A stretch of DNA of 64,000 nt from Tubulanus polymorphus (lineage: Eukaryota > Nemertea > Palaeonemertea > Tubulaniformes > Tubulanidae), in contig NC_134027.1 of NCBI RefSeq assembly GCF_964204645.1, positions 1,221,501 to 1,285,500 of the forward strand. Reading direction: 5' to 3'. The notes beneath the pieces are model-generated. The model was not told where the DNA came from and did not search any database. It saw only the letters and a list, made by a program, of their open reading frames with translations. The position numbers and the translations under genes are program-made. Shown piece by piece: positions 20,201 to 64,000 of the stretch; position 1 is the stretch's first letter, and each line of letters starts with the position of its first letter.

Positions 20201-23200
20201 GCAGACGGGCGTGCAGCTATTGTTCCCACTCTGCAGGCTTCAGTTTTTCGTTGATTTTCTTGTGACTTGGTATGTTTATTTTAGGTGTGAGGAAGATGAG
20301 CCCTATTGTTTTTGACAAATATACGTCATCCAAGATGGCCTCCACAGTCGTTGTGATGTGTGAAATAGCTATTTTGAAGCTTATTCCCGCTCTACAGACT
20401 TAAGTTTTTGTTTGATTTTCTTGTGACTCGAGCAAAAGGAGGATGAACTCTACTGTGTTCGATGTGTGTAGGTCATCAAAGATGGCCACCACAGTTATAT
20501 CAGTGTCTTAAATAGCCGATTTGGAGCTTGTTACATCTCTAAGGTGTACAGGTTTAGACTATATAATTTTATTCATAGTTGTACTGTGGTTTATTTATGG
20601 TGGTCGGAGGATGAGCCCTACATGATTCACTGGTCAAGGGTCAATGTCTAGTTTGTTAAACGTGGAGGAACTCGTGCTATGCCCTCAGGCGGTCCCCGGT
20701 GAATCCCCCCCCCCCCCCGGTTTCAGCGGTTTCAAGAGAACGAGAGACTCGATTAGATACGCAATATTCAGGCAGTACGGTGGAATTAGAAGTTCTGCGA
20801 TGATGTCATGTCATTATAGCAACTGATTATGACTGCCATGTTGGACGTTATACAACGGCAACAATGGAAATTTGACAACAAAAGATTGATTTTATTGATC
20901 AACACGTTCCATATAGCGTCCAGTCCAAAATGTCGACATGTTATTTTGTAGAACCTCTGTAGGGGCCTTGCTGTGGATGCTGACTATACTCGGACATCGA
21001 TTGCAGAACCTCTGTAGGGGCCTTGCTGTGGATGCTGACTATACTCAGACATCGATTGTAGAACCTCTGCAGGGGCCTTGCTGTGGATGCTGACTATACT
21101 CAGACATCAATTGTAGAACCTCTGTAGGGGCCTTGCTGTGGATGCTGACTATACTCAGACATCGATTGTAGAACCTCTGTAGGGGCCTTGCTGTGGATAC
21201 TGACTATACTCAGACATCGATTGTAGAACCTCTGTAGGGGCCTTGCTGTGGATGCTGACTATACTCGGACATCGATTGTAGAACCTCTGTAGGGGCCTTG
21301 TTGTGGATGCTGACTATACTCGGACATCGATTGTAGAACCTCTGTAGGGGCCTTGCTGTGGATGCTGACTACACTCGGACATCGATTGTAGAACCTCTGT
21401 AGGGGCCTTGCTGTGGATGCTGACTACACTCAGACATCGATTGTAGAACCTCTGTAGGGGCCTTGCTGTGGATGCTGACTATACTCAGACATCAATTGTA
21501 GAACCTCTGTAGGGGCCTTGCTGTGGATGCTGACTATACTCAGACATCGATTGTAGAACCTCTGTAGGGGCCTTGTTGTGGATGCTGACTATACTCAGAC
21601 ATCGATTGTAGAACCTCTGTAGGGGCCTTGCTGTGGATGCTGACTATACTCAGACATCGATTGTAGAACCTCTGTAGGGGCCTTGCGCTCGTATTATTGT
21701 GTAACTCCGTGTGCTGTGGACTAGAGTCTCATCTGCCCACATTGCGGTTCAGTCTGGTATTCCTCTGCCTAAGTCTGGTCTGGTGGTAGTAACATCAATC
21801 CTGGATAACCTTACCAGGGTTTATAGTTCGTTCCAGGATATAGCTGTATTAACAGGTGAGCTACGTGAGACTCGCAGCCGTCCGTGGGTGGCTCCGAGCC
21901 TGAGATGGGTGGCTCCGAGCCTGAGTCAGTTACCCAGGTTATTCAATCCTTGGCTCCGTCTGTCCATTATCATTTCGGGGTCAGGTTAATCTTATTTTAG
22001 CTTCCCGCCAATCAGACTTGGACGGCGGGTCTAAGGTCTGTCTGCTAGATATGGACTCAATTAGGACTCTCTGTACCACCAGTTATCCCACTAGATGGCG
22101 TGTGTGTGATCAGTGCGACAACCTTGTCAAAATCTAGTTCATTTTCAATGAACTGTCATCTAGATTTTTAGCCTCCCTTATCAGAAATTAGGCAAATTAC
22201 TCCTCAGATGATCTTTAGGTTCATATTTAAGGTGGTTTTTACTGATCACTGTTCAAAGAATTTGAGAAATTATGGAAAGATTTGAATTGAATCTGAGAAG
22301 AAATGCGGGAGTTGTCTGAATGCACACTAGCGACACCTGGTGGATCCACGATTGCCACAAGTGGAATCCTCGATTGCCACAGTCGAACGTAGAGTATTAA
22401 GAGCTCAATTAGGTTCTTCTTCATGTCTATTCTCTGGTTGGAGTGCTCCAGTTTTGACCGAACGGAGGAATATTTGAGAGGTGCAGATTCAAGTCCACCA
22501 CGCGTAGATGCGTTCTGGCGGCTCGACTCAAACAATGCCAGCTCAAGCATCCATACTTTCTCAAGCGGCTACTAATGCTGGTTGGAGAACAAGCGGACAG
22601 CTCCAACATTCTCGTGCCCTGGTCAGAATAATTCTAGTTCATATCGGTGAAAGAGGAATGCTCCTAAAAGGAGCTCTTCCTCACGGAGAACCTCAAAATG
22701 AATTCTCGGGGCCAGTGGGACGATGTCTACAACGAGCAGCCACCTACTGATCCGGCGTTCCCGGGTTGTATCACGGCGGCTACTGTCTTCAATTCTGAAC
22801 ACCTCCCGACACGCGCCCGAAAGCAGGTCACGAGACGCTCATCTCGTCGGCTCTCGAAGATCTGGCCAAACAGAGAGCAATAAAACCGGTACGGGACGAA
22901 GCCACACCCGGATGGTTTTCCCGAATATTTATGCTCCCGTAGGCCACAGGGCGTCAATGGACTTTAATAATAGACCTATCATTCCTCAATCGGCACATCA
23001 TATCCCGAGGTTTCCAATTACCAAACCCAGATGGTAATTCTCCGCCCAGGTCGATGGGCAGCTTCATTGGACCGGGAAGTTCCTATTCACCGGAGAACTC
23101 GTCAATTTCACGGAATAAAGCGGAAAGGCCGCTAGTTCCAATTCCGGTCTCTTCCAGTCGGCCTCAGTACAGCCCTGGGTATTTACCAGCTTGGGTCAAG

Positions 23201-26200
23201 TCCAGACTACAGTCATAGGTTTCATAGATATGGAAGAAAAATAATTCCAGGGAACATTTTGAAATTTGTCAGTTATAACCATGGTTTCTCATTGTTGCTA
23301 TCGTGGTTGTCACCCAGATTGGCGATTATAACCAAGTATTTGTCTGTTGGTTTACCTCGACGACTGGTTACTAGTACCAAACTCGACTATAGAATGTCAG
23401 GAGGCGGTGACCACTGTCGTAGACTTAGTTCACCAGTTAGGGTCCCGGGTAAACTAAGTAAAATCTCACTTGATGCCGTCCCAACAGTTCACATATCTAG
23501 ACATGGACTTCGATCTCCGGATTAGCACGGTCTTTCCGTCCATGGCTCGAGTAGCCAATCTTCAAGAAGCTGTATAGCGGTATTTACAACAACTGCGAAG
23601 ACGGCTAGTTATCGGTCAAGCCTGTGGCTAAATGCAATCTCTGGCAATCTCCAAATTCTCGGAGAATATTACCTAAAACCATAGGAAAGGGTAAAGCACT
23701 ACTCGGAAATACAAATTTTATTTCCAAAAATTATGATATAATATGGATTGCAGCTGTGTGGAAGAAGTTTTTAAAATTATTTAGGAGCTTATAATTTGAA
23801 TACATGAATTGAGAACAATTTGAAATGTGTTGATATCCAAAAGTGTCTCCATTGACTTCACTCATTCACCTGATGAAGCTTCTATACATTAGTACCCAAA
23901 GCTTGTGTGTCAAATAAACTAGTTACACGTCCTATAAAGTACTACTTGTCTCGTTATATATTCTAAACCCCAGTTAACAATTCCAGTAAGTCAGGTTTAG
24001 GGAATAGATATTTAAACCTTGAGATGAAACCGATGTGATACAATCCCAGTAAGTCAGGTTTAGGGAATAGATATTTAAACCTTGAGATGATACCGATGTG
24101 ATACAATTCCAGTAGGTCAGGTTTAGGGAATAGATATTTAAACCTTGAGATGATACCGATGTGATACAATTCCAGTAAGTCAGGTTTAGGGAATAGATAT
24201 TTAAACCTTGAGATGAAACCGATGTGATACAATTCCAGTAAGTCAGGTTTAGGGAATAGATATTTAAACCTTGAGATGAAACCGATGTGATACAATCCCA
24301 GTAAGTCAGGTTTAGGGAATAGATATTTAAACGTTGAGATGATACCGATGTGATAGAATTCCAGTAAGTCAGGTTTAGGGAATAGATATTTAAACCTTGA
24401 GATGAAACCGATGTGATACAATTCCAGTAAGTCAGGTTTAGGGAATAGATATTTAAACCTTGAGATGAAACCGATGTGATACAATCCCAGTAAGTCAGGT
24501 TTAGGGAATAGATATTTAAACCTTGAGATGATACCGATGTGATAGAATTCCAGTAAGTCAGGTTTAGGGAATAGATATTTAAACCTTGAGATGAAACCGA
24601 TGTGATACAATTCCAGTAAGTCAGGTTTAGGGAATAGATATTTAAACCTTGAGATGAAACCGATGTGATACAATCCCAGTAAGTCAGGTTTAGGGAATAG
24701 ATATTTAAACCTTGAGATGATACCGATGTGATAGAATTCCAGTAAGTCAGGTTTAGGGAATAGATATTTAAACCTTCAGATGAAACCGATGTGATACAAT
24801 TCCAGTAAGTCAGGTTTAGGGAATAGATATTTAAACCTTGAGATGATACCGATGTGATACAATTCCAGTAAGTCAGGTTTAGGGAATAGATATTTAAACC
24901 TTCAGATGAAACCGATGTGATACAATTCCAGTAAGTCAGTTTTAGGGAATAGATATTTAAACCTTGAGATGATACCAATGTAATACAATTCCTGTAAGTC
25001 AGGTTTAGGGAATAGATATTTAAACCTTGAGATGATACCGATGTGATACAATTCCAGTAAGTCAGGTTTAGGAAATAGATATTTAAACCTTCAGATGATA
25101 CCGATGTAATACAATCCCAGTAAGTCAGGTTTAGGGAATAGATATTCTAACCTTGAGATGATACCGATGTGATACAATTCCAGTAAGTCAGGTTTAGGGA
25201 ATAGATATTTAAACCTTCAGATGATACCGATGAATTTAGCAATTTTGAATGAATTAAACCAATAGATTTCGATCCTAAGAATATTGGAAGCTTGTGTTTA
25301 ACGTTACTAAATAGTAATATTATATAAAGCTAGAAGGACACGAGGGTATCCATTTTTTTGCCCGATCGCGACGATTAAATTCGCCGGTGAATTTATACGC
25401 CCGATACGAGCGGGTACCGATCTATTTATAAACCGGCCATCACGGTGATTTCGTCGCCCACCGACATTAAACATTTTCGATATTTATGCCGGTGTTCGCT
25501 CGTCATGTCGGCAAGCTTAAAAAGATTTAGAAAAAAATACAAATTCTCATTCGTGAATGAACTGGATTCATCTGGGTTCAGTTTCATGAGACACAGTTCA
25601 AACTGCTCTAGAATTTGAGTTTGTAATTAATGTATGTGATTATAATGAATTGTATTTTTTGTTTTACAGCTTTGGCATTTCGGTTAAGTCGTGCGTTCCG
25701 GAGGGAGGAGTTTGTACGTTTGTTTCTCCCGGAGTGTAAGTAGTTTTACTATTTTCATACTATATCATTCAGTGTGACGTGTGTCGCTGAATCAGGCGCG
25801 GATCCAGGAATTTTTCCAAGAGGGGGTTCATAAAAATCCTGACTAAAATCTCTAATGATAGCCGGGGCCTATACGGCATATTGTTTGGCCAAACATAAGA
25901 TCATATGGTACCGGTTTTTTGGCTTTTCTCGAGTAAGCATTTACATTCCTTCAAGAAAACAAATTTTTAGAATTTTTGGTAGCTGATCAGCGGGGTCACG
26001 ACCCCTGAAACCCTCCCTGGATCCGCGCCTATGATATCTCCTCAAAATCTAATAAAAACATTCAACAAATTAATGCTATAATGACGATATGTAGCCTGTT
26101 ATATCTGTCTATTTGAATGCATTTGCATAAAGAAATAGTTGCGGAATTATCAACCGCAAGTAAAAGTGTAACCCTAGTGGGTCTTAAGAGACGGCCAGAG

Positions 26201-28597
26201 CCTTTTTATAGGTTGTTATGGCTCACAACCTGACTTGAGTTAGCTGTACGGACCTGTCAGATTAGTTACTTCTAGAAGTTATGTTAGTCACATTTTCTGA
26301 CTATATTCTGGAAAACAGTGGAAGCTTGTATCCACCCTAGATTAGAACCAATCAGAATAGAACCAATCAGAATAAAACCAATCAGAATAGAACCAATCAG
26401 AGGAAAGTGTTATCTCTGATCGGGTTAACTCGAGATATAAGCAGCTGTTGATGTGAAACCTGCGGCCGCGGTATCAACGTCTTACTATAATACGCTATTT
26501 TACAGATAATTGATTTATGACAGGGTTTGGTTAATTAGCATTTTTTCTCGAGTAGTTGCCGAAAAAGCATAAAATTCGATTCAATTTCATTCAGATTTAA
26601 ACAAACAAATCAAATTTAATTTAAATAAACTTCAAATCTAATTAAAATTTTGTTCAGTATGAATAAGTTGCAAATCATTGAGAGGAAAAAATAATTAATT
26701 GTGTTACTTAAAAAAATCACAATTGTACTGTGTTTATCAAAACAGGAGACCACAGGACCTTTGGTCCTCTAGTATTCTTTTCCTGGCAATTCCAAAAACA
26801 CTAAAACAGTCCAATCAATGATCGCTGCCAGACCAACACGATTACATTGAAATCAAACTTAAGTAGCATCAGGCGCCCCCTGTTGGAATAATATTCATAG
26901 CCGTAGCATCGAAACCATTCGACTTGTTGTTTAATGTATTTCTCTCTATTTTTATTTTACAGTGGTGAACATTTTAGAAGAATGTCCGTTTGGGGACTTG
27001 GTGGGGGAATTCAAAAGAAACTTGGTTCCCGATAGGATACCACCACCGGTTAATCCTATGTCGCCCGCTGCTGCCCCTCCCCCACGTCCATTAAATTCGC
27101 CTCAGCAGCGGCCTGTCAGACAGCCGCCCCCGGCCGCCACTCGTTCGTCAGACAGAGTCCGGGGACGGCTGTTTGAAGGAGATCTGACGGAGGTAAGAAT
27201 GTTTATTTGTTTTCATATTTTATTCAGGATATCAGTTGAAGTTCAGCAAATAAATTACCCTATATGTCTACAGTTAGCCACTAATTCAACAAAAACCTGT
27301 TAACGGAAAAGAAGTTATAAATTTCCGTTTGCGGGTAAAACCCCATAGTCGAAAACCTTCGGGTTATTGATCTATATCTGCATAAGACCAATGGTTGTAC
27401 ACACGATTGCGAAAACTTATCCGTGGTAACGCGTAGAGTACACTATGCGTGACTTACCGTTTCCTATCACTGGAAAACAATACTGTTTTTGACCATGAGC
27501 GCCATCTGCGGCGGTCATACGGACTGACTGGTCATTGGCTGAAATGCTCGTCTACCGTGGTGACGATTATTCGGTGTTACACGTGCAGCAGACACGTCTC
27601 TGAATATCTAACATATCACATATTTCCCGACAACATTTGATTTTGTTGTAACTCATCGGAAAAATGTGTTTATGAGTTGATTTTTCGTCGAAATTTTGTT
27701 CCGCAAATAATTGGCTGTGTACGTCAAGAAGGCAGCTGATATTTGTATCGTGTGACCTCTCGGCCCGGTAATATGCCGACACACATACACCAGATGCTTA
27801 TTCCGTTGTATTGGATATAAACGCTGGCGTGCTCGTGACTTCCAGCAATGTTCTTATTCACCAAAAATATCATGTTTTGTCCGAGTCTGGATTGAACGGA
27901 TGACACGTTCAAACAGAACTACGAAATCAATTCCAGAAGTCGTTTTATATTGAAACGGTCCCAGAAGTCCCTGTTATAATGGGTACTTTTTCAAAAAAAG
28001 TAACGAGAACTCCGATGGCTTTACGTATCAGATTTCTATAAGCGTCACTCGTAGCTATACCTAAGCGCCACCTTGTGGCACGATATCCTACCGGTAACTA
28101 CATATAGGTGTTTTATTTGCTGAATCGCTGGTTTTCTCATTCTGATTTTTTATACTCGTGTTTGATTTTATACTAAACAAATTTTTCATTTTTTCTCTTT
28201 ACAGACACGACCACCGCCAAAAAAAACAAGATCAAAACGAAAAAGAAAAGTTGCGGTCGTCGTGGCTCCGCAGGGAGGAGGAGCAAGAGTGGTCCCGGCG
28301 GATGGTGCGGCTGACGAAGGTAATCGGGAGGAAGGGGAGGGGATAAATAGGAAGCGGCCGAGGAGGGATGGTGGTGGGGCTGGGGATGGTGCGGGTCCTG
28401 CTCCTCCTGCTCCTCCATCCGTATCTCGGGCGGTCACTCGTTCACTCGCCAAAAAGCTGGCGAGTGAACGAGTGGCCCGAGAGGTAGAGGTGGTGGCCCG
28501 ACATACGGATGGAATGTGGGAGGAGCGGCTTCGTTCGGGGACAATTCCGGATTTGTTAAACGATTTAAAAAATATTCTTTCAGTGAAGGGATATTAG
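13030..28597 (+). CDS. Unrecognised 346-aa nuclear-type protein, nine coding exons
   Basis: Nine exons join with one open frame: 13030-13092, 14237-14329, 14889-14936, 15311-15337, 17252-17290, 17501-17582, 25670-25735, 26963-27192 and 28205-28597. All introns are GT-AG. Predicted protein: MPKAQRKTRGAG start; 19 Gln (about residues 24-42); Thr/Pro/Ser-rich stretch; 8 Ser (96-103); charged, probably helical block (118-160, containing AFRREEFVRLFLPEL); Pro/Ala-rich segment (164-200); basic clusters KKTRSKRKRK (222-231) and RKRPRR (265-270), both NLS-like; and a C-terminal helical region ending DLLNDLKNILSVKGY. No enzyme motif or named domain is recognised. Composition suggests a nuclear, low-complexity regulatory or chromatin protein, but that is inference. 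The start ATG is the first codon after a 3-nt leader in its exon. Exons 7-9 recur at 56580-59522. Confidence 0.8.
13157..13265. mobile_element. 109-bp MITE-like inverted repeat (GGGYCCAGTTTCACAAA ends)
   Basis: GGGTCCAGTTTCACAAA at the left matches the reverse complement of TTTGTGAAACTGGGCCC at the right, and the interior AAATCGATTTAAG is also repeated inverted. It lies inside the intron after coding exon 1 and has no coding capacity. Confidence 0.8.
13270..14100. repeat. Diverged tandem duplication, about 400-bp unit
   Basis: Both halves run: A-rich start, TTCTGGAT, AAATATCGA-ATTCT, then TTTGCATTGTTT and GGTTGCTATGGAAACTATTTA (split here). First unit is about 13270-13550, second about 13680-14095. 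The second is interrupted by the TA-flanked element at 13817-13970. The duplication therefore predates that insertion. Confidence 0.65.
13817..13970. mobile_element. 154-bp TA-flanked MITE, pogo/Tigger-like ends
   Basis: The left end CAGCAGACTCCGCTTAA and the right end (complement) CAGTAGACTCGGC are imperfect TIRs. TA dinucleotides flank both ends (13815-13816 and 13971-13972), as for Tc1/mariner-pogo insertions. The left end resembles Tigger/pogo termini from memory, so the family is tentative. Confidence 0.55.
14237..14329 (+). CDS. Coding exon 2, poly-glutamine tract
   Basis: The acceptor TTTTATAG ends at 14236. Codons read Arg-Thr, then 19 glutamines (mostly CAA, some CAG), then RFNISMSGID, and the donor GTAAGT begins at 14330. 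Phase 0 at both ends, 31 codons. The near-pure CAA run is a triplet microsatellite and probably length-polymorphic. Confidence 0.82.
14889..14936 (+). CDS. Coding exon 3, Thr/Pro-rich
   Basis: It lies between the acceptor TATTTTCAG and the donor GTAAGTG and encodes 16 residues, FLPTTPTTPPSGTSTP. Phase 0 at both ends. The sequence has an internal CCGACAACG duplication. Confidence 0.78.
15311..15337 (+). CDS. Coding exon 4, 27-nt microexon
   Basis: It lies between the acceptor ATCTTTACAG and the donor GTAAGAC and encodes nine residues, NISPIQHVD, phase 0. At 27 nt it could be skipped without changing the frame. Confidence 0.7.
16212..16225 (+). promoter_or_regulatory. CTCF-like motif
   Basis: CCACCAGATGGCGC fits the conserved bilaterian CTCF core CCASYAGRKGGCRS. 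It is intronic, with a second similar word (CCGTTAGATGGCGCC) at 16151-16165. Occupancy is unknown. Confidence 0.4.
16424..16439 (-). promoter_or_regulatory. CTCF-like motif within the dispersed repeat
   Basis: TAGCGACACCTGGTGG is near the reverse CTCF consensus. The same word occurs in the related repeat at 22328-22343 and in its duplicate at 53095-53110, so this site is repeat-borne. Confidence 0.35.
17252..17290 (+). CDS. Coding exon 5
   Basis: It lies between the acceptor TTTCATTTCTAG and the donor GTAAGTATC and encodes 13 residues, GHIGRLAPSPSLN. Phase 0 at both ends, like exons 1-4, so exons 2-5 could be skipped singly without a frameshift. Confidence 0.75.
17501..17582 (+). CDS. Coding exon 6, poly-serine tract
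   Basis: The acceptor CTATTTACAG ends at 17500. The exon encodes SDLNN, eight Ser (one AGT then seven AGC), then APLPPETPPDLQAR, and ends with a single A before GTAAGTT (phase 1). The AGC run is a triplet microsatellite. This is the last exon before the 8.1-kb repeat-filled intron. Confidence 0.8.
17628..17760. mobile_element. 133-bp TA-flanked MITE
   Basis: ACAAGAGAAATCCCACAATA at the left is exactly inverted at the right end (TATTGTGGGATTTCTCTTGT), and the pairing continues through AAGTTCA. TA lies at both flanks (17626-17627 and 17761-17762). The interior holds GCGCAACGTTTCGGC and GCCATCATC. It sits 45 bp downstream of the exon 6 donor. Confidence 0.85.
18084..18130 (+). repeat. 22-bp direct repeat, two copies
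   Basis: CTCTCTATACAGTGAGTACTTGTA is followed directly by CTCTCTATACAGTGAGT. Each copy contains CAG-GTGAGT-like splice words by chance. Intronic. Confidence 0.7.
18543..19345 (+). repeat. 52-bp minisatellite, about 15 copies
   Basis: The unit begins AGGCATCACCGGGTACTGAA and continues through CATCCGGTCAGCTCCGTGCA with CCGG-rich ends. Variant units (for example GAGTACTGAACATCCGATCA) recur at higher-order spacing, which suggests block duplication inside the array. It is GC-rich compared with its surroundings and lies in the intron between exons 6 and 7. Confidence 0.95.
19480..19935 (+). repeat. Mixed 35/26-bp minisatellite
   Basis: The core GAGGGACCGTTTAGGAAGTT is followed either by CATGTCTTTCACGTC (long) or by CACGTC (short). 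The long and short units interleave through about 13-14 copies. Confidence 0.93.
20215..20640 (+). repeat. Diverged tandem units of about 150 bp
   Basis: Three units share AGCTTATTCCCGCTCTACAG, TTTGATTTTCTTGTGACT, GGAGGATGAGCCCTACTGT and GTCATCAAAGATGGCC. The second and third are also the first sequence after the N gap at 50985. The third is strongly diverged. Confidence 0.55.
20950..21690 (+). repeat. 55-bp minisatellite, about 13 copies
   Basis: The unit begins TGTAGAACCTCTGTAGGGGC and continues CTTGCTGTGGATGCTGACTA with TACTCAGACATCGAT. Single-base variants (CTCGG/CTCAG, TTGTTG/TTGCTG) are distributed across the array. The partner array at 51490-52443 has about 17 copies. Confidence 0.96.
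21700..23660 (+). pseudogene. Degenerate DIRS-like retroelement (gag-like and RT remnants), copy 1
   Basis: The RT part is recognised by FQFRSLPVGLSTAL (from 23136) and, in another frame, YLDDWLLVP from 23353. These match the RT motifs typical of tyrosine-recombinase (DIRS-type) retroelements, including the YxDD catalytic box. Downstream words (FDLRISTVFPS, ARVANLQEAV) fit the region after the active site. Upstream, Ser/Arg/Lys-rich frames at 22500-22900 could be a gag remnant. Frameshifts and stops make it inactive. This copy has nonsense changes absent from its partner: TAG at 23133-23135 and at 23575-23577. No recombinase domain or inverted terminal repeats were seen, so DIRS is the best fit rather than proven. 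Confidence 0.7.
22088..22100 (+). promoter_or_regulatory. CTCF-like motif in retroelement remnant
   Basis: CCACTAGATGGCG fits the CTCF core. It pairs at 240-bp distance with the opposite-orientation TAGCGACACCTGGTGG at 22328-22343, so the element carries a convergent motif pair. Confidence 0.35.
23970..25230. repeat. 63-bp minisatellite, about 20 copies, copy 1
   Basis: The unit begins AATTCCAGTAAGTCAGGTTT and contains AGGGAATAGATATTTAAACC and TGAGATGAWACCGATGTGAT. Period 63 is a multiple of three and the minus strand lacks stops in two frames, giving artificial open frames of 236 and 334 codons made of 21-residue repeats. It starts about 300 bp after the DIRS-like remnant. Confidence 0.96.
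25670..25735 (+). CDS. Coding exon 7, charged helical block
   Basis: The acceptor TTTTTGTTTTACAG ends at 25669. The leading CT completes a Thr codon with the A of exon 6, then LAFRLSRAFRREEFVRLFLP-E, and the final T forms Leu with exon 8. The donor is GTAAGTAG. The pattern of Leu/Phe and Arg/Glu is that of an amphipathic helix. Exon 7' at 56580-56645 differs by one synonymous change. Confidence 0.82.
25793..26031. mobile_element. Non-autonomous TIR element with AGGCGCGGATCCAGG ends, copy B
   Basis: Left end CAGGCGCGGATCCAGG, right end CCTGGATCCGCGCCTA. The interior is the reverse complement of the element at 4257-4522 (GGCCTATACGGCATATTG, TTTGGCCAAACATAAG). It lies 57 bp downstream of exon 7 and is present in both copies of the large duplication, so it predates it. 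Confidence 0.8.
26345..26401 (+). repeat. 15-bp repeat of CCAATCAG, four copies
   Basis: AGAACCAATCAGAAT repeats four times here and five times at 57255-57327. Each unit contains the NF-Y core CCAAT in the same orientation. It could be a CCAAT cluster or merely a minisatellite. Confidence 0.85.
26871..26887 (-). promoter_or_regulatory. Strong CTCF-like motif
   Basis: The complement TCCAACAGGGGGCGCCT is very close to the vertebrate CTCF consensus. It lies 76 bp upstream of coding exon 8 and is conserved at 57796-57812. Confidence 0.45.
26963..27192 (+). CDS. Coding exon 8, helical then proline-rich
   Basis: The acceptor TTTTATTTTACAG ends at 26962. TG completes a Leu codon, followed by 76 residues starting VNILEECPFGDLVGEFKRNL, then a Pro/Ala/Gln-rich stretch and ending RLFEGDLTE before GTAAGAAT. 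Codon composition is GC-rich compared with the flanking introns. The partner exon 57888-58117 appears identical in sequence. Confidence 0.85.
27497..27514 (-). promoter_or_regulatory. Strong CTCF-like motif
   Basis: The complement CCGCCGCAGATGGCGCTC matches the CTCF core CCGCAGATGGCGC. It lies in the intron after exon 8 and is conserved at 58422-58439. Confidence 0.45.
28062..28079 (-). promoter_or_regulatory. Strong CTCF-like motif
   Basis: The complement GCCACAAGGTGGCGCTTA matches the CTCF core CCACAAGGTGGCGC. It lies 126 bp upstream of the last exon and is conserved at 58987-59004. Confidence 0.45.
28205..28597 (+). CDS. Coding exon 9, basic clusters and C-terminus
   Basis: The acceptor TTTCTCTTTACAG ends at 28204. 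It encodes 130 residues and ends at TAG (28595-28597). Features in order: TRPPPKKTRSKRKRK (basic cluster), Gly/Ala/Glu-rich region, RKRPRR, an AGPAPPAPPS linker, then a Lys/Arg/Glu-rich helical tail ending KNILSVKGY. The copy at 59130-59522 has one clear replacement in the first cluster (Ser to Pro) among several neighbouring silent changes. Confidence 0.85.
   Translation, partial: TRPPPKKTRSKRKRKVAVVVAPQGGGARVVPADGAADEGNREEGEGINRKRPRRDGGGAGDGAGPAPPAPPSVSRAVTRSLAKKLASERVAREVEVVARHTDGMWEERLRSGTIPDLLNDLKNILSVKGY
28415..28512 (+). other. Nested palindrome inside coding exon 9
   Basis: The inner arms CACTCGTTCACTCGCC (28435-28450) and GGCGAGTGAACGAGTG (28459-28474) are perfect complements with an 8-nt loop. 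The outer arms CCATCCGTATCTCGGGC (28415-28431) and GCCCGACATACGGATGG (28496-28512) pair with one mismatch. The structure is unchanged in the second copy (59340-59437). Confidence 0.9.
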
Positions 28598-28648
28598 GTG
28601 CCTTGAACGCATGAGTCGTTCATGTGCGCCTAATATGCCTTCACTGAA
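28579..28648 (+). ncRNA. 70-nt pre-miRNA-sized hairpin over the stop codon
   Basis: The 5' arm starts TTCAGTGAAGG and contains the stop (ATATTAGG). The 3' arm ends CCTTCACTGAA. A terminal stem GAACG/CGTTC encloses the loop CATGAGT. Only a few mismatches and one G-U pair interrupt about 31 pairs. In the second copy (59504-59573) a G-to-A change turns the G-U pair into A-U, preserving pairing. Size and shape resemble a miRNA precursor, but no known family is recognised. It could equally regulate the 3' end of the mRNA. Confidence 0.4.
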
Positions 28649-28719
28649 AAAAAATCAACTATAACATGTACCACATATTTTTTGATTTAATTTTAGTCCA
28701 ATTCCACAATTATTTCGGC

Positions 28720-28908
28720 TTACAATAGTGTCTTCAATTCTTTAAAGCCCAAAGCACCTTTTTGACTCAACATCCAGTATGAAGGTGGCCGGGAATTGGG
28801 CCTTTTTTCTTCCTTTTTTGTATCCCGCCCAGCATACTGGTTGTTGACTCGAAAAGGTGCTCGCTCTGGGAGCTTATCAAAGGCAGGTGATGGGAAAGGT
28901 GCCATCAC
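28720..28908 (-). pseudogene. Minus-strand open frame (62 codons), possible terminal exon, copy 1
   Basis: It reads MMAPFPSPAFDKLPERAPFR and continues with NNQYAGRD, RPPSYWMLSQKGALGFKEL. The residue mix looks like genuine protein rather than chance. A possible acceptor (CTCTAG) lies just upstream on the minus strand, so the frame may be a last exon. In this copy a TAA ends the frame after KTLL, whereas the copy at 59618-59833 reads nine codons further. Family not recognised. It lies tail-to-tail with the 346-aa gene. Confidence 0.3.
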
Positions 28909-30815: not shown

Positions 30816-30819
30816 AGCT

Positions 30820-31770: not shown

Positions 31771-31775
31771 TGATC

Positions 31776-36960: not shown

Positions 36961-36964
36961 GAAT

Positions 36965-49610: not shown

Positions 49611-49619
49611 TCTATATAT

Positions 49620-50380: not shown

Positions 50381-50384
50381 AAAA

Positions 50385-52443: not shown

Positions 52444-52466
52444 GGAGCATTGCGCTCGTATTATTG

Positions 52467-54749: not shown

Positions 54750-56130
54750 AATTCCAGTAAGTCAGGTTTAGGGAATAGATATTTAAACCTTGAGATGAAA
54801 CCGATGTGATACAATTCCAGTAAGTCAGGTTTAGGGAATAGATATTTAAACCTTGAGATGAAACCGATGTGATACAATCCCAGTAAGTCAGGTTTAGGGA
54901 ATAGATATTTAAACCTTGAGATGATACCGATGTGATAATATTCCAGTAAGTCAGGTTTAGGGAATAGATATTTAAAAATTGAGATGATACCGATGTGATA
55001 CAATTCCAGTAAATCAGGTTTAGGGAATAGATATTTAAACCTTGAGATGAAACCGATGTGATACAATTCCAGTAAGTCAGGTTTAGGGAATAGATATTTA
55101 AACCTTGAGATGAAACCGATGTGATACAATCCCAGTAAGTCAGGTTTAGGGAATAGATATTTAAACCTTGAGATGATACCGATGTGATAGAATTCCAGTA
55201 AGTCAGGTTTAGGGAATAGATATTTAAACCTTGAGATGAAACCGATGTGATACAATTCCAGTAAGTCAGGTTTAGGGAATAGATATTTAAACCTTGAGAT
55301 GAAACCGATGTGATACAATCCCAGTAAGTCAGGTTTAGGGAATAGATATTTAAACCTTCAGATGATACCGATGTGATAGAATTCCAGTAAGTCAGGTTTA
55401 GGGAATAGATATTTAAACCTTGAGATGATACCGATGTGATACAATTCCAGTAAGTCAGGTTTAGGGAATAGATATTTAAACCTTCAGATGAAACCGATGT
55501 GATACAATTCCAGTAAGTCAGGTTTAGGGAATAGATATTTAAACCTTGAGATGATACCGATGTAATACAATTCCTGTAAGTCAGGTTTAGGGAATAGATA
55601 TTTAAACCTTGAGATGATACCGATGTGATACAATTCCAGTAAGTCAGGTTTAGGAAATAGATATTTAAACCTTCAGATGATACCGATGTAATACAATCCC
55701 AGTAAGTCAGGTTTAGGGAATAGATATTTTAACCTTGAGATGATACCGATGTGATACAATTCCAGTAAGTCAGGTTTAGGGAATAGATATTTAAACCTTG
55801 AGATGAAACCGATGTGATACAATCCCAGTAAGTCAGGTTTAGGGAATAGATATTTAAACCTTGAGATGATACCGATGTGATACAATTCCAGTAAGTCAGG
55901 TTTAGGAAATAGATATTTAAACCTTCAGATGATACCGATGTAATACAATCCCAGTAAGTCAGGTTTAGGGAATAGATATTTTAACCTTGAGATGATACCG
56001 ATGTGATACAATTCCAGTAAGTCAGGTTTAGGGAATAGATATTTAAACCTTGAGATGATACCGATGTGATACAATTCCAGTAAGTCAGGTTTAGGGAATA
56101 TATATTTAAACCTTAAGATGATACCGATGA
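54750..56130. repeat. 63-bp minisatellite, about 22 copies, copy 2
   Basis: Same unit as 23970-25230. The order of AAACCG/ATACCG and TTGAG/TTCAG variants differs in the middle, and a block near the 3' end is duplicated. Confidence 0.95.
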
Positions 56131-56579
56131 ATTTAGCAATTTTGAATGAATTAAACCAATAGATTTCCAAAAGAGATTTCGATCCTAAGAATATTGGAAG
56201 CTTGTGTTTAACGTTACTAAATAGTAATATTATATAAAGCTAGAAGGACACGAGCGTATCCATTTTTTTGCCCGATCGCGACGATTAAATTCGCCGGTGA
56301 ATTTATACGCCCGATACGAGCGGGTACCGATCTATTTATAAACCGGCCATCACGGTGATTTCGTCGCCCACCGACATTAAACATTTTCGATATTTATGCC
56401 GGTGTTCGCTCGTCTTGTCGGCAAGCTTAAAAAGATTTAGAAAAAAATACAAATTCTCATTCGTGAATGAACTGGATTCACCTGGGTTCAGTTTCATGAG
56501 ACACAGTTCAAACTGCTCTAGAATTTGAGTTTGTAATTAATGTATGTGATTATAATGAATTGTATTTTTTGTTTTACAG

Positions 56580-56645
56580 CTTTGGCATTTCGGTTAAGTC
56601 GTGCGTTCCGGCGGGAGGAGTTTGTACGTTTGTTTCTCCCGGAGT
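56580..56645 (+). CDS. Coding exon 7' (second copy)
   Basis: Same splice sites and peptide as exon 7 at 25670-25735. AGG is replaced by CGG, both Arg. No copies of exons 1-6 are present upstream in this window, because the duplication begins after exon 6. Confidence 0.8.
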
Positions 56646-56699
56646 GTAAGTAGTTTAACTATTTTCATACTATATCATTCAGTGTGACGTGTGTCACTG

Positions 56700-56941
56700 A
56701 ATCAGGCGCGGATCCAGGAATTTTTCCAAGAGGGGGTTCATAAAAATCCTGACTAAAATCTCTAATGATAGCCGGGGCCTATACGGCATATTGTTTGGCC
56801 AAACATAAGATCATATGGTACCGGTTTTTTGGCTTTTCTCGAGTAAGCATTTAAATTCCTTCAAGAAAACAAATTTTTAGAATTTTTGGTAGCTGATCAG
56901 CGGGGTCACGACCCCTGAAACCCTCCCTGGATCCGCGCCTA
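56700..56941. mobile_element. TIR element with AGGCGCGGATCCAGG ends, copy B'
   Basis: Duplicate of 25793-26031 with almost identical sequence and position relative to exon 7'. Confidence 0.8.
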
Positions 56942-57254
56942 TGATATCTCCTCAAAATCTAATAAAAACATTCAACAAATTAATGCTATAATGACGATAT
57001 GTAGCCTGTTATATCTGTCTATTTGAATGCATTTGCATAAAGAAATAGTTGCGGAATTATCAACCGCAAGTAAAAGTGTAACCCTAGTGGGTCTTAAGAG
57101 ACGGCCAGAGCCTTTTTATAGGTTGTTATGGCTCACAACCTGACTTGAGTTAGCTGTACGGACCTGTCAGATTAGTTACTTCTAGAAGTTATGTTAGTCA
57201 CATTTTCTGACTATATTCTGGAAAACAGTGGAAGCTTGTATCCACCCTAGATTA

Positions 57255-57327
57255 GAACCAATCAGAATAGAACCAATCAGAATATAACCAATCAGAATAG
57301 AACCAATCAGAATAGAACCAATCAGAG
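57255..57327 (+). repeat. 15-bp CCAATCAG repeat, five copies
   Basis: One unit longer than the counterpart at 26345-26401; one unit reads ATATAACCAATCAG. Confidence 0.85.
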
Positions 57328-57887
57328 GAAAGTGTTATCTCTGATCGGGTTAACTCGAGATATAAGCAGCTGTTGATGTGAAACCTGCGGCCGCGGTATC
57401 AACGTCTTACTATAATACGCTATTTTACAGATAATTGATTTATGACAGGGTTTGGTTAATTAGCATTTTTTCTCGAGTAGTTGCCGAAAAAGCATAAAAT
57501 TCGATTCAATTTCATTCAGATTTAAACAAACAAATCAAATTTAATTTAAATAAACTTCAAATCTAATTAAAATTTTGTTCAGTATGAATAAGTTGCAAAT
57601 CATTGAGAGGAAAAAATAATTAATTGTGTTACTTAAAAAAATCACAATTGTACTGTGTTTATCAAAACAGGAGACCACAGGACCTTTGGTCCTCTAGTAT
57701 TCTTTTCCTGGCAATTCAAAAAACACTAAAACAGTCCAATCAATGATCGCTGCCAGACCAACACGATTACATTGAAATCAAACTTAAGTAGCATCAGGCG
57801 CCCCCTGTTGGAATAATATTCATAGCCGTAGCATCGAAACCATTCGACTTGTTGTTTAATGTATTTCTCTCTATTTTTATTTTACAG

Positions 57888-58117
57888 TGGTGAACATTTT
57901 AGAAGAATGTCCGTTTGGGGACTTGGTGGGGGAATTCAAAAGAAACTTGGTTCCCGATAGGATACCACCACCGGTTAATCCTATGTCGCCCGCTGCTGCC
58001 CCTCCCCCACGTCCATTAAATTCGCCTCAGCAGCGGCCTGTCAGACAGCCGCCCCCGGCCGCCACTCGTTCGTCAGACAGAGTCCGGGGACGGCTGTTTG
58101 AAGGAGATCTGACGGAG
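57888..58117 (+). CDS. Coding exon 8' (second copy)
   Basis: Same borders, length and sequence as 26963-27192 as far as I can see. The lack of change across 230 bp compares with scattered differences in the introns. Confidence 0.83.
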
Positions 58118-59129
58118 GTAAGAATGTTTATTTGTTTTCATATTTTATTCAGGATATCAGTTGAAGTTCAGCAAATAAATTACCCTATATGTCTACAGTT
58201 AGCCACTAATTCAACAAAAACCTGTTAACGGAAAAGAAGTTATAAATTTCCGTTTGCGGGTAAAACCCCATAGTCGAAAACCTTCGGGTTATTGATCTAT
58301 ATCTGCATAAGACCAATGGTTGTACACACGATTGCGAAAACTTATCCGTGGTAACACGTAGAGTACACTATGCGTGACTTACCGTTTCCTATCACTGGAA
58401 AACAATACTGTTTTTGACCATGAGCGCCATCTGCGGCGGTCATACGGACTGACTGGTGATTGGCTGAAATGCTTGTCTACCGTGGTGACGATTATTCGGT
58501 GTTACACGTGCAGCAGACACGTCTCTGAATATCTAACATATCACATATTTCCCGACAACATTTGATTTTGTTGTAACTCATCGGAAAAATGTGTTTATGA
58601 GTTGATTTTTTGTCGAAATTTTGTTCCACAAATAATTGGCTGTGTACGTCAAGAAGGCAGCTGATATTTGTATCGTGTGACCTCTCGGCCCGGTAATAAG
58701 CCGACACACATACATCAGATGCTTATTCCGTTGTATTGGATATAAACGCTGCTGTGCTCGTGACTTCCAGCAATGTTCTTATTCACCAAAAATATCATGT
58801 TTTGTCCGAGTCTGGATTGAACGGATGACACGTTCAAACAGAACTACGAAATCAATTCCAGAAGTCGTTTTATATTGAAACGGTACCAGAAGTCCCTGGT
58901 CTAATGGATACTTTTTCAAAAAAAGTAACGAGAACTCCGATGGCTTTACGTATCAGATTTCTATAAGCGTCACTCGTAGCTATACCTAAGCGCCACCTTG
59001 TGGCACGATATCCTACCGGTAACTACATATAGGTGTTTTATTTGCTGAATCGCTGGTTTTCTCATTCTGATTTTTTATACTCGTGTTTGATTTTATACTA
59101 AACAAATTTTTCATTTTTTCTCTTTACAG

Positions 59130-59522
59130 ACACGACCACCGCCAAAAAAAACTAGACCTAAAAGGAAAAGAAAAGTTGCGGTCGTCGTGGCTCCGCAGGG
59201 AGGAGGAGCAAGAGTGGTCCCGGCGGATGGTGCGGCTGACGAAGGTAATCGGGAGGAAGGGGAGGGGATAAATAGGAAGCGGCCGAGGAGGGATGGTGGT
59301 GGGGCTGGGGATGGTGCGGGTCCTGCTCCTCCTGCTCCTCCATCCGTATCTCGGGCGGTCACTCGTTCACTCGCCAAAAAGCTGGCGAGTGAACGAGTGG
59401 CCCGAGAGGTAGAGGTGGTGGCCCGACATACGGATGGAATGTGGGAGGAGCGGCTTCGTTCGGGGACAATTCCGGATTTGTTAAACGATTTAAAAAATAT
59501 TCTTTCAGTGAAGGGATATTAG
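59130..59522 (+). CDS. Coding exon 9' (second copy)
   Basis: Same length and stop as exon 9. Differences cluster in the first 50 bases: ACA to ACT and CGA to AGG (both silent) and TCA to CCT (Ser to Pro) in the basic cluster. The nested palindrome (59340-59437) and stop-codon hairpin (59504-59573) are both kept. Confidence 0.83.
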   Translation, partial: TRPPPKKTRPKRKRKVAVVVAPQGGGARVVPADGAADEGNREEGEGINRKRPRRDGGGAGDGAGPAPPAPPSVSRAVTRSLAKKLASERVAREVEVVARHTDGMWEERLRSGTIPDLLNDLKNILSVKGY

Positions 59523-59573
59523 GTGCCTTGAACGCATGAGTCGTTCATGTGCACCTAATATGCCTTCACTGAA
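59504..59573 (+). ncRNA. Pre-miRNA-sized hairpin, second copy
   Basis: Counterpart of 28579-28648. The single difference (GCGCC to GCACC) improves base pairing. Confidence 0.4.
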
Positions 59574-59617
59574 AAAAAATCAACTATAACATGTACCACA
59601 TATTTTTTGATTTAATT

Positions 59618-59833
59618 TTAGTCCAATTCCACAATTATTTCGGCTTTCAATAGTGTCTTCAATTCTTTAAAGCCCAAAGCACCTTTTTGACTCAACATCC
59701 AGTATGAAGGTGGCCGGGAATTGGGCCTGTTTTCTTCCTTTTTTGTATCCCGCCCAGCATACTGGTTGTTGACTCGAAAAGGTGCTCGCTCTGGGAGCTT
59801 ATCAAAGGCAGGTGATGGGAAAGGTGCCATCAC
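59618..59833 (-). CDS. Minus-strand open frame (71 codons), possible terminal exon, copy 2
   Basis: Same frame as 28720-28908, but it continues past KTLL to KAEIIVELD and a TAA or TAG stop. One further replacement (EEK to EEN) separates the copies. This is the fuller version. Family not recognised. Confidence 0.3.
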   Translation of the reverse strand: MMAPFPSPAFDKLPERAPFRVNNQYAGRDTKKEENRPNSRPPSYWMLSQKGALGFKELKTLLKAEIIVELD

Positions 59834-60164
59834 ACACTCTCCTTTGATAAGTTTCCTAGAGTGTCACGGGCTTTAACGGGTTGAATTCACTATAATACCA
59901 ATTTTCCAAAATCAATTTAATTTCTTTCAGGCCATTCTTTTTCCATGTTTTTCTGGTACATGTTATGGTTGATTTCCATTTTCGAAAATCCGGAATTGAA
60001 GCCGTTCGAAGTCGGGGGGATGGTGGTGGGGTTGGGTTAGTTTAGGGTTCCTCTCTGATTACCTTCTTTAGCTCATCATCCGTGCAGGTGGCGCTTGCTC
60101 TTCTAGCCGGTGTTCCCTGGGGTAAACATTTTAAATTAAAAAGATCAAAAATTTAAAAAAAATT

Positions 60165-60870
60165 ATAAAATCTTTAAAAATCTCATCTCATTTCATCCAA
60201 TTTATTTATTTGCGGGTGCGATCCCTATCGCACCCATTCATGTCATTCATCCAAAAAATTTAAAAAATCAAAAATAAAAAAAAATTATAAAATCTTAAAA
60301 AATCTCATCTCATTTCATCCAATTTATTTGCGGGTGCGATCCCTATCGCACCCATTCATGTCATTCATCCAAAAAAAATTAAAAACTAAAAAAGAAAAAA
60401 AATATAAAAATTCAAAAAATCTCATCTCATTTCATCCAATTTATTTATTTGCGGGTGTGATGCCTATCGCACCCATTCATGTCATTCATCCAAAAAAAAT
60501 TAAAAACTAAAAAAGAAAAAAAATATAAAAATTTAAAAAATCTCATCTCATTTCATCCAATTTATTTATTTGCGGGTGCGATTCTTATCGCACCCATTCA
60601 TGTCATTCATCCAAAAAAAATTAAAAACTAAAAACAAAATAGAAAATTATAAAATCTTAAAAAATCTCATCTCATTTCATCCAATTTATTTATTTGCGGG
60701 TGCGATTCCTATCACACCCATTCATGTCATCCATCCAAAAAAAATTAAAAAATTAAAAACAAAATAGAAAATTATAAAATCTTAAAAAATCTCATCTCAT
60801 TTCATCCAATTTATTTGCGGGTGCGATTCCTATCGCACCCATTCATGTCATTCATCCAAAAAAAATTTAA
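60165..60870 (+). repeat. About 120-bp hairpin-bearing tandem array, copy 2
   Basis: Six units as at 29240-29945. Two GC stems carry single mismatches here (GGGTGTGAT and ATCACACCC). Confidence 0.9.
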
Positions 60871-61129
60871 AAACTAGAAATTAAAGTTCTAAGTTTGTTG
60901 TTAGATTCTATTGAAAGAACGTTGTAAAGTTCTTAATTTGTCGTAAAAAACGTTAGAAAAAAAGAACTTCTTAAAGTTCTCAATCTGCCGTAAAATGCAA
61001 TTGAAAAGATTATAACTCACATGAAAATTAAAAAGATAAAATAATTGATAAATAATCATTAATAAAAATTGAACTTTGGTCTCGCAATGTTTCCCCGTTA
61101 TGCGTTTTTTACTCGTCGTCAAACATCGG

Positions 61130-61920
61130 CAGCTCATCGTCGATACTCGCAGCTCGATACACACCAGCAGTTCGATACCAGCAGTTCGTCGTCGATACAC
61201 ACCAGCAGTTCGATACACGCCAGCAGCTCGATACACACCAGCAGTTCGTCGTCGATACACACCAGCAGTTCGTCGTCGATACACACCAGCAGTTCGTCGT
61301 CGATACACACCAGCAGCTCGATACTCACCAACAGCTCGATACACGCCAGCAGTTCGTCGTCGATACACACCAGCAGTTCGATACTCACCAGCAGCTCGTC
61401 GTCGATACACACCAGCAGTTAGTCGTCGATTCACACCAGCAGTTCGTCGTCGATACACACCAGCAGTTCGATACACACCAGCAGCTTGTCCATACTCACC
61501 AGCAGTTTGTCGTCGATACACACCAGCAGTTCGTCGTCGATACTCACCAGCAGCTCGATACACACCAGCAGTTTGTCGTCGATACACACCAGCAGCTCGA
61601 TACTCACCAGCAGCTCGTCGTCGATACACACCAGCAGTTAGTCGTCGATACACACCAGCAGTTCGATACTCACCAACAGCTCGATACACGCCAGCAGTTC
61701 GTCGTCGATACCCACCAGCAGTTCGTCATCGATATACACCAGCAGTTCATCGTTGATACACACCAGCAGTTCGTCGTCGATACACACCAGCAGTTCGATA
61801 CTCACCAGCAGCTCGATACACACCAGCAGCTCGTCGATACTCACCAGCAGCTCGATACTCACCAGCAGCTCGTCGTCGATACACACCAGCAGCTCGATAC
61901 ACACCAGCAGCTTGATACCA
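61130..61920. repeat. 18/24-bp mosaic minisatellite, copy 2
   Basis: Same unit types as 30200-30815, but about 170 bp longer and with extra variants (CAGTTAGTCG, TTCATCG). Open frames on both strands are by-products of triplet-length units. Confidence 0.95.
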
Positions 61921-62892
61921 AAACAGCTTTTAGCTGGTGAAAACCTACCCCCCCATCGGGGTTAAACATGATCAAGCTATTATTCTAGGAATATAACTGT
62001 TGCAAGGGAAGTTAAGATTCATTAACCTAAACTTGATACAAAGAGATTATTGCTAATTATGAATTTCAAGGGTTTAAAAACTGATTTAAAAATCTTGAAA
62101 GACGCTCGGTCTCACTAGAGATTTTCATCTTAAAGATTTATTGTCCTCTTACTATTGTTTAGGTGATCTATAATTTGGTAAATGCTGCTGTTGGAAAGAT
62201 GCCAGAAGAAAGTTGATTCATGCACATCTTCACTTCACGTATTTATTGCACAAGGCGCCGACTTGCACCTGCACTACACCATTCACACTTCATCACTTCT
62301 GCATCTTTATCAATTAATTCTGGCATCTATTTGAAAATTACTTTAAACATCAGATCTCAAACTGAAACATTGAGGTATTGAATTTCAAACTGAAATATGG
62401 AGCTATCGAATCTCGATCTCAAATGTTTACTGGAAGCCATATTTGATGTTGTATTATTCATCATAGATTGTTTAGTGTTTTCTGGCATATGCGGGCCATT
62501 TAAGATGGTCAGATAAATTCCCCGGTGGAAAATATATCTCGTGGAAGAGTCATGGAAATGAAAAATATCTTATGTAGATGTGAAGTTAGGAACCTTGCAA
62601 CAGTTATTCCACCTGAGGATAATTTGATATAAGATGAATCAGTTATTGGATCATTTAACTGAAGCCAAATATAGTGAAAAATCTTAGTACAAATTTGTCT
62701 CAAACTACAATTGAAAGGACTTATCACAGTTCTAATTCGACTCTAGGTGCGTTCAGAAGAACTTCTTAACAGTGAAAAAACTTGACTAAAAATCAGGAAT
62801 CGACCCTGTTCATTGATAAGATTTGATCTTTATTTGAAGATTAAGAATCAAACTCGCTAATTCACAATTTTTGGTAGTAAATACTGTTGATC

Positions 62893-63100
62893 CATCATAT
62901 TCGCAGCCCCCGTGGGCTTACCAATCCATCATACGTGCAGCCCCCTTGGGCTTACCAGTCTATCATACTCGCAGCCCCAGTGGGCTTATCAATCCATCAT
63001 ACGTGCAGCCCCCTTGGGCTTACCAGTCTATCATACTCGCAGCCCCAGTGGGTTTATCAATCCATCATACGTGTAGCCCCCTTGGGCTTACCAGTCTATG
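62893..63100. repeat. 34-bp hairpin minisatellite, copy 2
   Basis: Same alternating units as 31776-31972, followed by about 114 bp (63097-63210) not present in copy 1. Confidence 0.88.
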
Positions 63101-63920
63101 AGAAACATTCAGACATAGTAACCTCATGCTTTTCAACGACACCTTCTTATCACTCTGTAGAATGGCAATCGCAGCGTGAAATTTGTAATCGTATTTCTCC
63201 GCTGAATTTGAATATTTGATACGCGACGCGCGCGATTGAAGCTTTGTTTATGTTCGTGCTTGCCGCGATGAATTGTCATAAATATATCCTCCGTACAGGA
63301 GGACCAGAAAAGGTTTGAAGGGATCCCTAGTTAGCGCTTGTCCAGGTTTGGCTCTGGACCCGCTTGTTCGACTAGGCATCTTGTTGGAAATTTTGTCGAC
63401 TGAAACTTTCGTAACTTTCGTTTTAGACCTCACTTAGAAACCGCCTTGTTCTTCTGCCGTAGATGTTGACTGTGTCGTACCCACAGTAGTATCATTTGAG
63501 ATCTTCAAAGTCTCATTGCTTGAAAGTAGCCATCTTAAATTCAAATAGTTTCGGACATTTGAGGTCCTCATCAACTCCGAGTCTTCATTCAACTGCAGTT
63601 ACTGCCATTTGCCAGTGTCTGATGTAGAAGTGTCTGACTTGACATTTTGATTTTCAGAATTAAAACCTTTTTCTATTAAAGAAATTAGATATTGGTTAAA
63701 AAAAACGAGTGAATAATTGTTTGTAAGAAAAAAGAAAATCTTGTTAGAAAAAAATATAGATGTAAAAAAATATTGATGTAAGAAAAAAAAGTATATTGTA
63801 AATCGACAGACAACAGAACCAGCATCAGCAACAACAACATCAGAGGAAGCAGTAACCAGTTATTTATCAGCTCCATAAATTACTGAAACGAAATCCACAA
63901 CTTGGAAACCAGACACACTC

Positions 63921-64000
63921 GACTCTAGAATTGTTTATACAACTGTCAACATGGAGTTCATCTCACAAGCAAATTAGGTAATTATCTTATGATTTTGTAT
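63921..64000 (+). repeat. Start of the exon-like module array, copy 2 (truncated by window end)
   Basis: It reads CAACATGGAGTTCATCTCAC and onward to AAATTAG and the donor GTAATTATC, matching 32690-32769. The array presumably continues beyond the window. Confidence 0.85.

What the first reader, a model, noticed from the sequence alone, without database searches (positions are those of the whole stretch)
20334..64000. 12-13 kb co-oriented duplication whose second copy starts exactly at the N gap
50985-64000 matches 20334-32769 with few substitutions, but minisatellite lengths differ at every array. The match starts at the first base after a 100-N gap, which is the pattern of an unpurged second haplotype joined by scaffolding. 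The alternative is a recent segmental duplication including exons 7-9 of a gene. Gene counts and any two-copy biology depend on which is right.
Basis: partly seen in the sequence, partly recalled or inferred. Interest (0 to 1): 0.75.

Follow-up and report, generated by a model that had tools for sequence, protein, structure and literature searches.

The report
Tandem gene array split by gap
The repeated stretch is most likely part of a real array of roughly 46-kb gene units rather than a stray second haplotype, and the genes in it have small exons whose silent letters differ far more between copies than the introns beside them, which is unusual.

Summary
The duplication is real but about 30 kb long: 20334-50884 matches 50985-82238, running past the window edge. 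A third co-oriented unit (C) follows in the same gap-free sequence, and the family's last exon has at least 37 further matches, all near one end of three large contigs. The gap therefore most likely interrupts a tandem array (B-to-C period 46.4 kb) and hides about 15.4 kb. A plain unpurged haplotype is disfavoured: over the first 15.5 kb B differs from A at 139 of 9,345 sites, from C at 56, and A from C at 133; beyond a 46-bp minisatellite B follows A (55 of 13,377). A C-left/A-right hybrid lying between A and C is what one unequal crossover would leave, though smaller conversion patches are also present. Reads are needed to exclude a chimeric assembly. Each unit carries a gene of at least five predicted exons with no Pfam, NCBIfam or PDB relative. 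Between units, exon 1, exon 2 and the start of exon 4 differ at 11-16% of sites, sampled introns at 0.2-2.5%, the last exon's core at 0.1%. Exon-1 differences are mostly silent (pS 0.36, pN 0.08), so positive selection on the protein does not explain them. Species unnamed.

The parts
6968..50541 (+). Unit A of the array (left limit of homology to unit C to the limit of homology to unit B)
   Evidence: self-alignment of window plus 60 kb
50501..50884 (+). End of unit A running into the start of the next unit; matches the B/C junction at 81854-82238 (98.4%)
50885..50984 (.). 100-N gap inside the array; about 15.4 kb of unit B (its exons 1-3) probably missing here
   Evidence: spacing of exon 5: A-B 30,925, B-C 46,358 (positions)
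50985..64000 (+). Unit B, left-truncated by the gap, continuing to 82006 beyond the window
13027..13092 (+). Predicted exon 1 of the unit A gene (ATG at 13030), hypervariable between units, mostly at silent sites
14889..14936 (+). Predicted exon 2, hypervariable between units
17501..17582 (+). Predicted exon 3; not hypervariable in the two units compared
26963..27192 (+). Predicted exon 4; first 48 bp hypervariable, rest nearly invariant
28205..28597 (+). Predicted last exon with stop codon; core 28265-28559 has 2 variable sites of 295 among 25 units
28424..28482 (+). Long hairpin inside the last exon (fold of 28405-28520, z = -10.1)
28585..28642 (+). Hairpin at and after the stop codon (z = -7.7)
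57888..58117 (+). Exon 4 in unit B
59130..59522 (+). Last exon in unit B
34985..35783 (+). 46-bp minisatellite; its counterpart in B (66203-66863 in extended coordinates) is where B switches from C-like to A-like
20946..21686 (+). 55-bp minisatellite, 741 bp in A, 962 bp in B
23977..25232 (+). 63-bp minisatellite, 1256 bp in A, 1382 bp in B

Best explanation
The two copies are neighbouring units of a true tandem array. Copy B is a third unit, between A and C, made by unequal crossing-over: a C-type left part joined to an A-type right part, with the switch in a 46-bp minisatellite, followed by smaller conversion patches. The assembler broke inside B and the scaffold gap hides about 15.4 kb of it. 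Shown: array context, third unit in gap-free sequence, hybrid affinity of B, place of the switch. Inferred: that B exists as a separate unit on the chromosome, the crossover itself, and the size and content of the hidden piece.
For: Unit C follows B without a gap. The sequence left of the gap already runs past the end of A into the start of another unit. Three-way counts: left part A-B 139, B-C 56, A-C 133 of 9,345; right part A-B 9, B-C 222 of 1,681 sites shared by all three, and A-B 55 of 13,377. 356 informative sites fall in 30 runs where 155 are expected, z = -15. The long-range switch lies between 66189 and 66978, where the 46-bp array sits at 66203-66863. Spacing of the last exon is 46,358 from B to C and 30,925 across the gap; in the other C3 cluster four of six spacings are 42.8-46.3 kb (positions). 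Arrays of the same unit occur at C3 0.40-0.76 Mb and C6 1.05-1.75 Mb. Both tested flanks are single copy in full length. At 5 of the 16 sites in the exon 4-5 region where A = C differ from B, B has the state most common in the other units.
Against: A gap between duplicates is a known mark of false duplication. B differs from C on the left by 0.60% and from A on the right by 0.41%, which alleles could do. B has 0-1 differences from C in the first 2,763 non-repeat sites after the gap, so an assembly chimera is conceivable. The left part is not purely C-like: A-like runs occur within it, so one crossover alone does not explain it. No read data.
Confidence: 0.7

Rival explanations
1. Unpurged second haplotype: contig 1 ends in A, contig 2 begins in the allele of A (B) and goes on to C, so the chromosome has two units here, not three; the left part of the B allele was converted by C.
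For: Gap between the copies; flush overlap of both contig ends; average A-B difference 196 of 22,731 is in the range of ordinary heterozygosity.
Against: A-B difference on the left (139) is not below A-C (133), and B is closest to C (56); needs an extra conversion of about 15 kb. No second copy of the tested flanks.
Confidence: 0.17
2. Assembly chimera: reads of the second haplotype of C (left part) and of A (right part) were joined through the shared minisatellite, giving a unit that does not exist.
For: The switch lies in a minisatellite; both parts differ from their nearest relative by a similar amount, 0.60% and 0.41%.
Against: The 55-bp array differs in length between B (962 bp) and C (about 740 bp), so B-left is not a simple repeat of the same C sequence; hybrid units are also the normal product of crossover in arrays.
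Confidence: 0.1
3. For the exon pattern: exon variants are old and were kept apart while introns were homogenised by conversion, with no exon-specific process.
For: Exon dN/dS is low (exon 1 0.18, exon 2 0.11), so the variants have been under purifying selection for some time; overall exon-1 and intron-1 distances correlate (Spearman 0.36 over 276 pairs).
Against: The change of level falls at the exon edges; within C6 the correlation is weak (0.14, p = 0.19); units whose intron 1 differs by 0.2% have exon 1 differing by 16.7% (L026/L027).
Confidence: 0.4

Closest known systems
False heterotype duplications in genome assemblies (PMC9516828; passages read)
   Same: Two co-oriented near-identical copies on one scaffold with a gap between them.
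   Different: Third unit in gap-free sequence and many further copies; B is nearer C than A over 15 kb; depth and k-mers untested.
Tandem arrays evolving by unequal crossing-over and gene conversion (general knowledge, recalled)
   Same: Hybrid unit between its two parents, patchwork of conversion runs, units homogenised at about 1%.
   Different: Three small coding segments escape homogenisation at silent sites while neighbouring introns do not.
185/333 (SpTransformer) genes of sea urchin (PMC1988830; listing with start of abstract only; details recalled)
   Same: Large clustered gene family with strongly variable coding segments.
   Different: No sequence comparison was made; here the proteins look nuclear and basic, and variation is mainly silent.
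[quoted passage not shown] outline and abstract)
   Same: Variation confined to a defined coding part with conserved surroundings.
   Different: HYP are single-gene loci varying in motif number and order; this is a multicopy array varying by substitution, mainly silent.
Drosophila amplified drive genes countered by hairpin RNA (PMC10292708 and PMC10317233; listing only)
   Same: Amplified, nuclear-looking gene family with inverted, broken copies nearby and strong hairpins.
   Different: No RNA data, no homology, sex linkage unknown; resemblance of situation only.

Membership tests
Unpurged haplotype (false heterotype duplication) | Gap between the two copies on one scaffold | tested here: met
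   100-N gap at 50885-50984
Unpurged haplotype (false heterotype duplication) | Second copy is allelic: nearer to the first copy than to any other locus along its length | tested here: not met
   Left 9,345 sites: A-B 139, B-C 56, A-C 133; met only on the right part
Unpurged haplotype (false heterotype duplication) | Half read depth and one-copy k-mers over both copies | not testable with these tools
   No reads are held
Tandem segmental duplication | Two or more co-oriented copies in gap-free sequence | tested here: met
   B and C in 50985-124000 without N
Tandem segmental duplication | Single-copy sequence on both sides of the array | tested here: met
   Window 1000-3000 and C3:1342500-1345000 each match in full length once, other matches being short repeats
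Unequal-crossover hybrid unit | Unit between two parents with one parent's left part and the other's right part | tested here: met
   with additional short patches that one crossover does not explain
Unequal-crossover hybrid unit | Unit physically present on the chromosome | not testable with these tools
   Needs spanning reads
HYP effectors | Single-gene locus with variation in number and order of motifs | tested here: not met
   Many gene copies; variation is substitutions with a few in-frame indels
Known protein family of Pfam | Match above curated cut-off | tested here: not met
   10 reading frames; exons 4+5; distant branch; best are below cut-off
Amplified drive gene with hairpin-RNA suppressor | Small RNAs from inverted copies target the gene | not testable with these tools
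   No RNA data; inverted broken copies exist

The most novel reading that the evidence does not exclude
Three small coding segments of an amplified nuclear gene family are diversified at the nucleotide level by a process that sees the spliced message and not the introns: either selection on the mature mRNA to escape homology-based silencing (inverted broken copies in the same arrays could be the source of the silencing RNA), or exon-bounded exchange of cassettes templated by RNA or cDNA. The last exon is held nearly constant even at silent sites, perhaps through its hairpins.
Probability: 0.25. Interest if true: 0.8.

Novelty: new variant of a known kind. Interest (0 to 1): 0.5.

Why it matters
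For the assembly: gene counts here should not be halved as a haplotig artefact without read evidence; more likely one gene of a large family lost its first three exons in a gap. For biology: silent sites are usually taken as a neutral clock close to introns. A family in which exon silent sites differ by 0.2-0.4 per site while neighbouring introns differ by 0.01-0.025, and another exon is frozen, would make it possible to test what acts on mature messages (small-RNA escape, RNA-templated exchange) against ordinary concerted evolution.

Tried and rejected
Tried and of no use: Pfam scans of ten window reading frames and of joined exons 4+5, PDB by sequence and by a four-sequence profile of the C-terminal part, and NCBIfam: nothing significant. 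AlphaFold without an alignment gave mean pLDDT 57.9, pTM 0.21, with two low-confidence helices at the C-terminal end, so no fold search was made. A COX1 search to learn the species found nothing in the assembly. Rfam and ARAGORN gave only one tRNA-Pro in the window. A screen for codons under selection between A and D was not informative.

Considered and rejected: positive selection on the protein as the cause of the variable exons (pooled dN/dS 0.18, 0.11 and 0.50 for exon 1, exon 2 and the first 16 codons of exon 4). The rest of exon 4 has dN/dS 1.42 but on almost no differences (dS 0.006, dN 0.009). Artefact of choosing units by exact exon flanks: 20 of the 24 exon 1-2 rows were chosen through, which fixes 13 and 15 flanking bases; the four rows not so chosen (A, C, D8, E) show the same, 79 of 396 in exon 1 against 9 of 822 upstream and 119 of 6,523 in intron 1. 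The exon 4-5 rows were chosen by the last exon, not by exon 4.

Results against or weakening the exon reading: the unbiased island scan found 9 islands against D and 6 against E, of which 3 and 1 lie on predicted exons and the other 11 do not. Exon 3 is not hypervariable in D or E. Overall exon-1 and intron-1 distances correlate at 0.36. In the 174-bp triple repeat of exon 1 only one of three pairs has an unchanged downstream intron (0 of 68, exon 9 of 66, upstream 4 of 40); the other two pairs differ at 19 of 68. The exons are predicted from splice signals, frame and conservation, not from transcripts.
Full report
Observation. The window holds one N run, 100 bases at 50885-50984, and a co-oriented match begins at the first base after it. 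The window is C3:1221501-1285500 of an unnamed 267.8-Mb genome in 77 contigs. I fetched the next 60 kb; it contains no further N. Coordinates above 64000 below are this extension. The match goes on past the window edge to 50541 = 82006, and the last bases before the gap, 50501-50884, match 81854-82238 at 98.4%. So the left contig already runs beyond unit A into the start of another unit.

A third unit. From about 82.0 kb a third co-oriented unit, C, follows B without a gap and matches A from 6968 onward. The left flank (window 1000-3000) and a right flank (C3:1342500-1345000) occur once in full length in the assembly, their other matches being short repeats.

Three-way comparison. Outside minisatellites, over 50985-66500, 9,345 sites align in all three: A-B 139 differences, B-C 56, A-C 133. 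In the first 2,763 of them B-C has 1 and A-B 30. Over 66501-82006, A-B is 55 of 13,377, and where C aligns B-C is 222 of 1,681. The 356 informative sites form 30 runs against 155 expected (z = -15). The last long C-like run ends at 66189 and the A-like part begins at 66978; the 46-bp minisatellite of B lies between, at 66203-66863. Short A-like runs within the left part and B-specific sites at 58-60 kb show that conversion has also acted. A C-left/A-right unit lying between A and C is the product expected from one unequal crossover of an A-C pair. The rival readings, an allele of A converted by C or a chimera of second-haplotype pieces, are not excluded, because 0.60% and 0.41% divergence from the nearer parent is also what alleles could show and no reads were available.

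Missing piece. The last exon lies 30,925 bases apart between A and B, across the gap, and 46,358 between B and C (positions). If the period holds, the gap hides about 15.4 kb, which would carry B's exons 1-3. No exon-1 or exon-2 match with exact flanks was listed on a small unplaced contig.

The wider family. The last exon gives 40 scored DNA matches (40 of 88 candidates scored): 10 on C3, 24 on C6, 6 on C8. With the protein, 121 of 121 candidates were scored and 34 matches cover all 130 residues without a stop, 10 on C3, 18 on C6 and 6 on C8. They lie at C3 0.42-1.33 Mb (contig 27.8 Mb), C6 0.65-1.75 Mb (23.0 Mb) and C8 15.14-16.31 Mb (16.7 Mb), that is, near one end of each. Exact-flank patterns found 41 copies of exon 1 (27 forward, 14 reverse), 30 of exon 2 and 30 of exon 4. 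Inverted copies of the last exon on C6 are broken by stops in the two that I read, and one search lists further partial or stop-bearing matches.

Gene model. Splice signals, frame and conservation give five exons on the + strand of unit A: 13027-13092, 14889-14936, 17501-17582, 26963-27192 and 28205-28597. Phases agree. No transcript evidence exists here, and more exons may be missing. No relative was found in Pfam, NCBIfam or the PDB. The protein has basic stretches that look like nuclear localisation signals (by eye, not tested). A distant branch shares only the last 60 or so residues, 44-45% identical, on C11, C9 and C8.

Exon divergence. Across 24 units, mean pairwise difference per site is 0.160 in exon 1 and 0.124 in exon 2, against 0.010 upstream, 0.024 in intron 1 and 0.023 in the first part of intron 2. 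Across 25 units it is 0.110 in the first 48 bp of exon 4, against 0.0016 in the 51 scorable sites of the preceding intron end, 0.025 in intron 4, 0.008 in the rest of exon 4 and 0.001 in the core of the last exon (two rows, D8 and E, are cut short there). Variable sites: exon 1 26 of 66 against intron 1 89 of 1,391 (p = 1.7e-13); exon 2 13 of 39 (p = 1e-6); exon 4 start 18 of 48 against intron 4 117 of 941 (p = 1.8e-5); last-exon core 2 of 295 (p = 1.5e-12). None of 1,494 intronic 66-bp windows reaches exon 1's value; the highest, 0.109, is a microsatellite. Sites within units are not independent, so p-values are descriptive.

The differences are mainly silent. Exon 1: pS 0.36, pN 0.08 in 23 ungapped rows; exon 2, 15 rows of equal length: pS 0.32, pN 0.05. 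Among 41 exon-1 copies there are 31 distinct coding sequences and 40 of 41 keep the frame. Four third-position sites carry three or four different bases in that set. The last-exon core has pS 0.000. Older C8 copies, whose intron 4 differs at 37-39% of alignable sites, keep the last 213 bases of the coding part at pS 0.07-0.12. The last exon holds a long hairpin (z = -10.1) and another lies at its stop codon (z = -7.7).

Linkage. Exon-1 and exon-2 distances are uncorrelated (Spearman -0.03 over 276 pairs). Exon-1 and intron-1 distances correlate at 0.36 overall but 0.14 (p = 0.19) within C6. Units L026 and L027 differ by 0.2% in intron 1 and 16.7% in exon 1. At C3:654303-654744 exon 1 occurs three times at 174-bp spacing; two neighbours have identical downstream introns (0 of 68) but differ at 9 of 66 exon bases, and one of them has the same exon 1 as the C8 unit (0 of 66).

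Mechanism. For the duplication: tandem array with unequal crossing-over (most likely). For the exons I cannot decide between old variants spared by homogenisation (0.4), nucleotide-level selection on the mature message or exon-bounded templated exchange (together about 0.25), and something else. Positive selection on the protein alone does not fit.

Literature. Seven library searches showed no description of such a family in the rows listed; several returned more papers than were listed. I read passages of PMC9516828 and the outline and abstract of PMC11228951; other papers were seen as listings only.

Noticed in passing
L074 (C11:2084300-2085300), L075, L076, L077: A second branch sharing only the last ~60 residues (44-45% identity), with closely similar copies on C11, C9 and C8, long basic and acidic repeats and no significant Pfam match.
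   Followed up: partly
C3:654303-654744 (L073): Exon 1 repeated three times at 174-bp spacing on the minus strand with different exon sequences.
   Followed up: partly
L018 and L020 (ends of C3 and C8): The start of C3 and the end of C8 carry the same GGGACTGGAGTGGA-type minisatellite; no runs of the usual telomere repeats were seen in the seven sampled contig ends.
   Followed up: no
window 5282-5478 and L019 (start of C6): A 72-bp repeat left of unit A resembles sequence at the very start of C6.
   Followed up: no
window 22242-23522 and 53009-54293: Broken reading frames that look to me like a degenerate retroelement (recalled impression); ten of the window's frames including these had no significant Pfam match. 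The nearby stretch 52517-52780 matches about 20 other places at 67-83%.
   Followed up: no
C6:1128865-1130957 and C6:1162103-1164195 (L034, L035): Two units 33 kb apart with no difference in exon 1, exon 2, intron 1 or the upstream flank compared.
   Followed up: no
window 4130-4201: A tRNA-Pro gene (TGG) left of the array.
   Followed up: no
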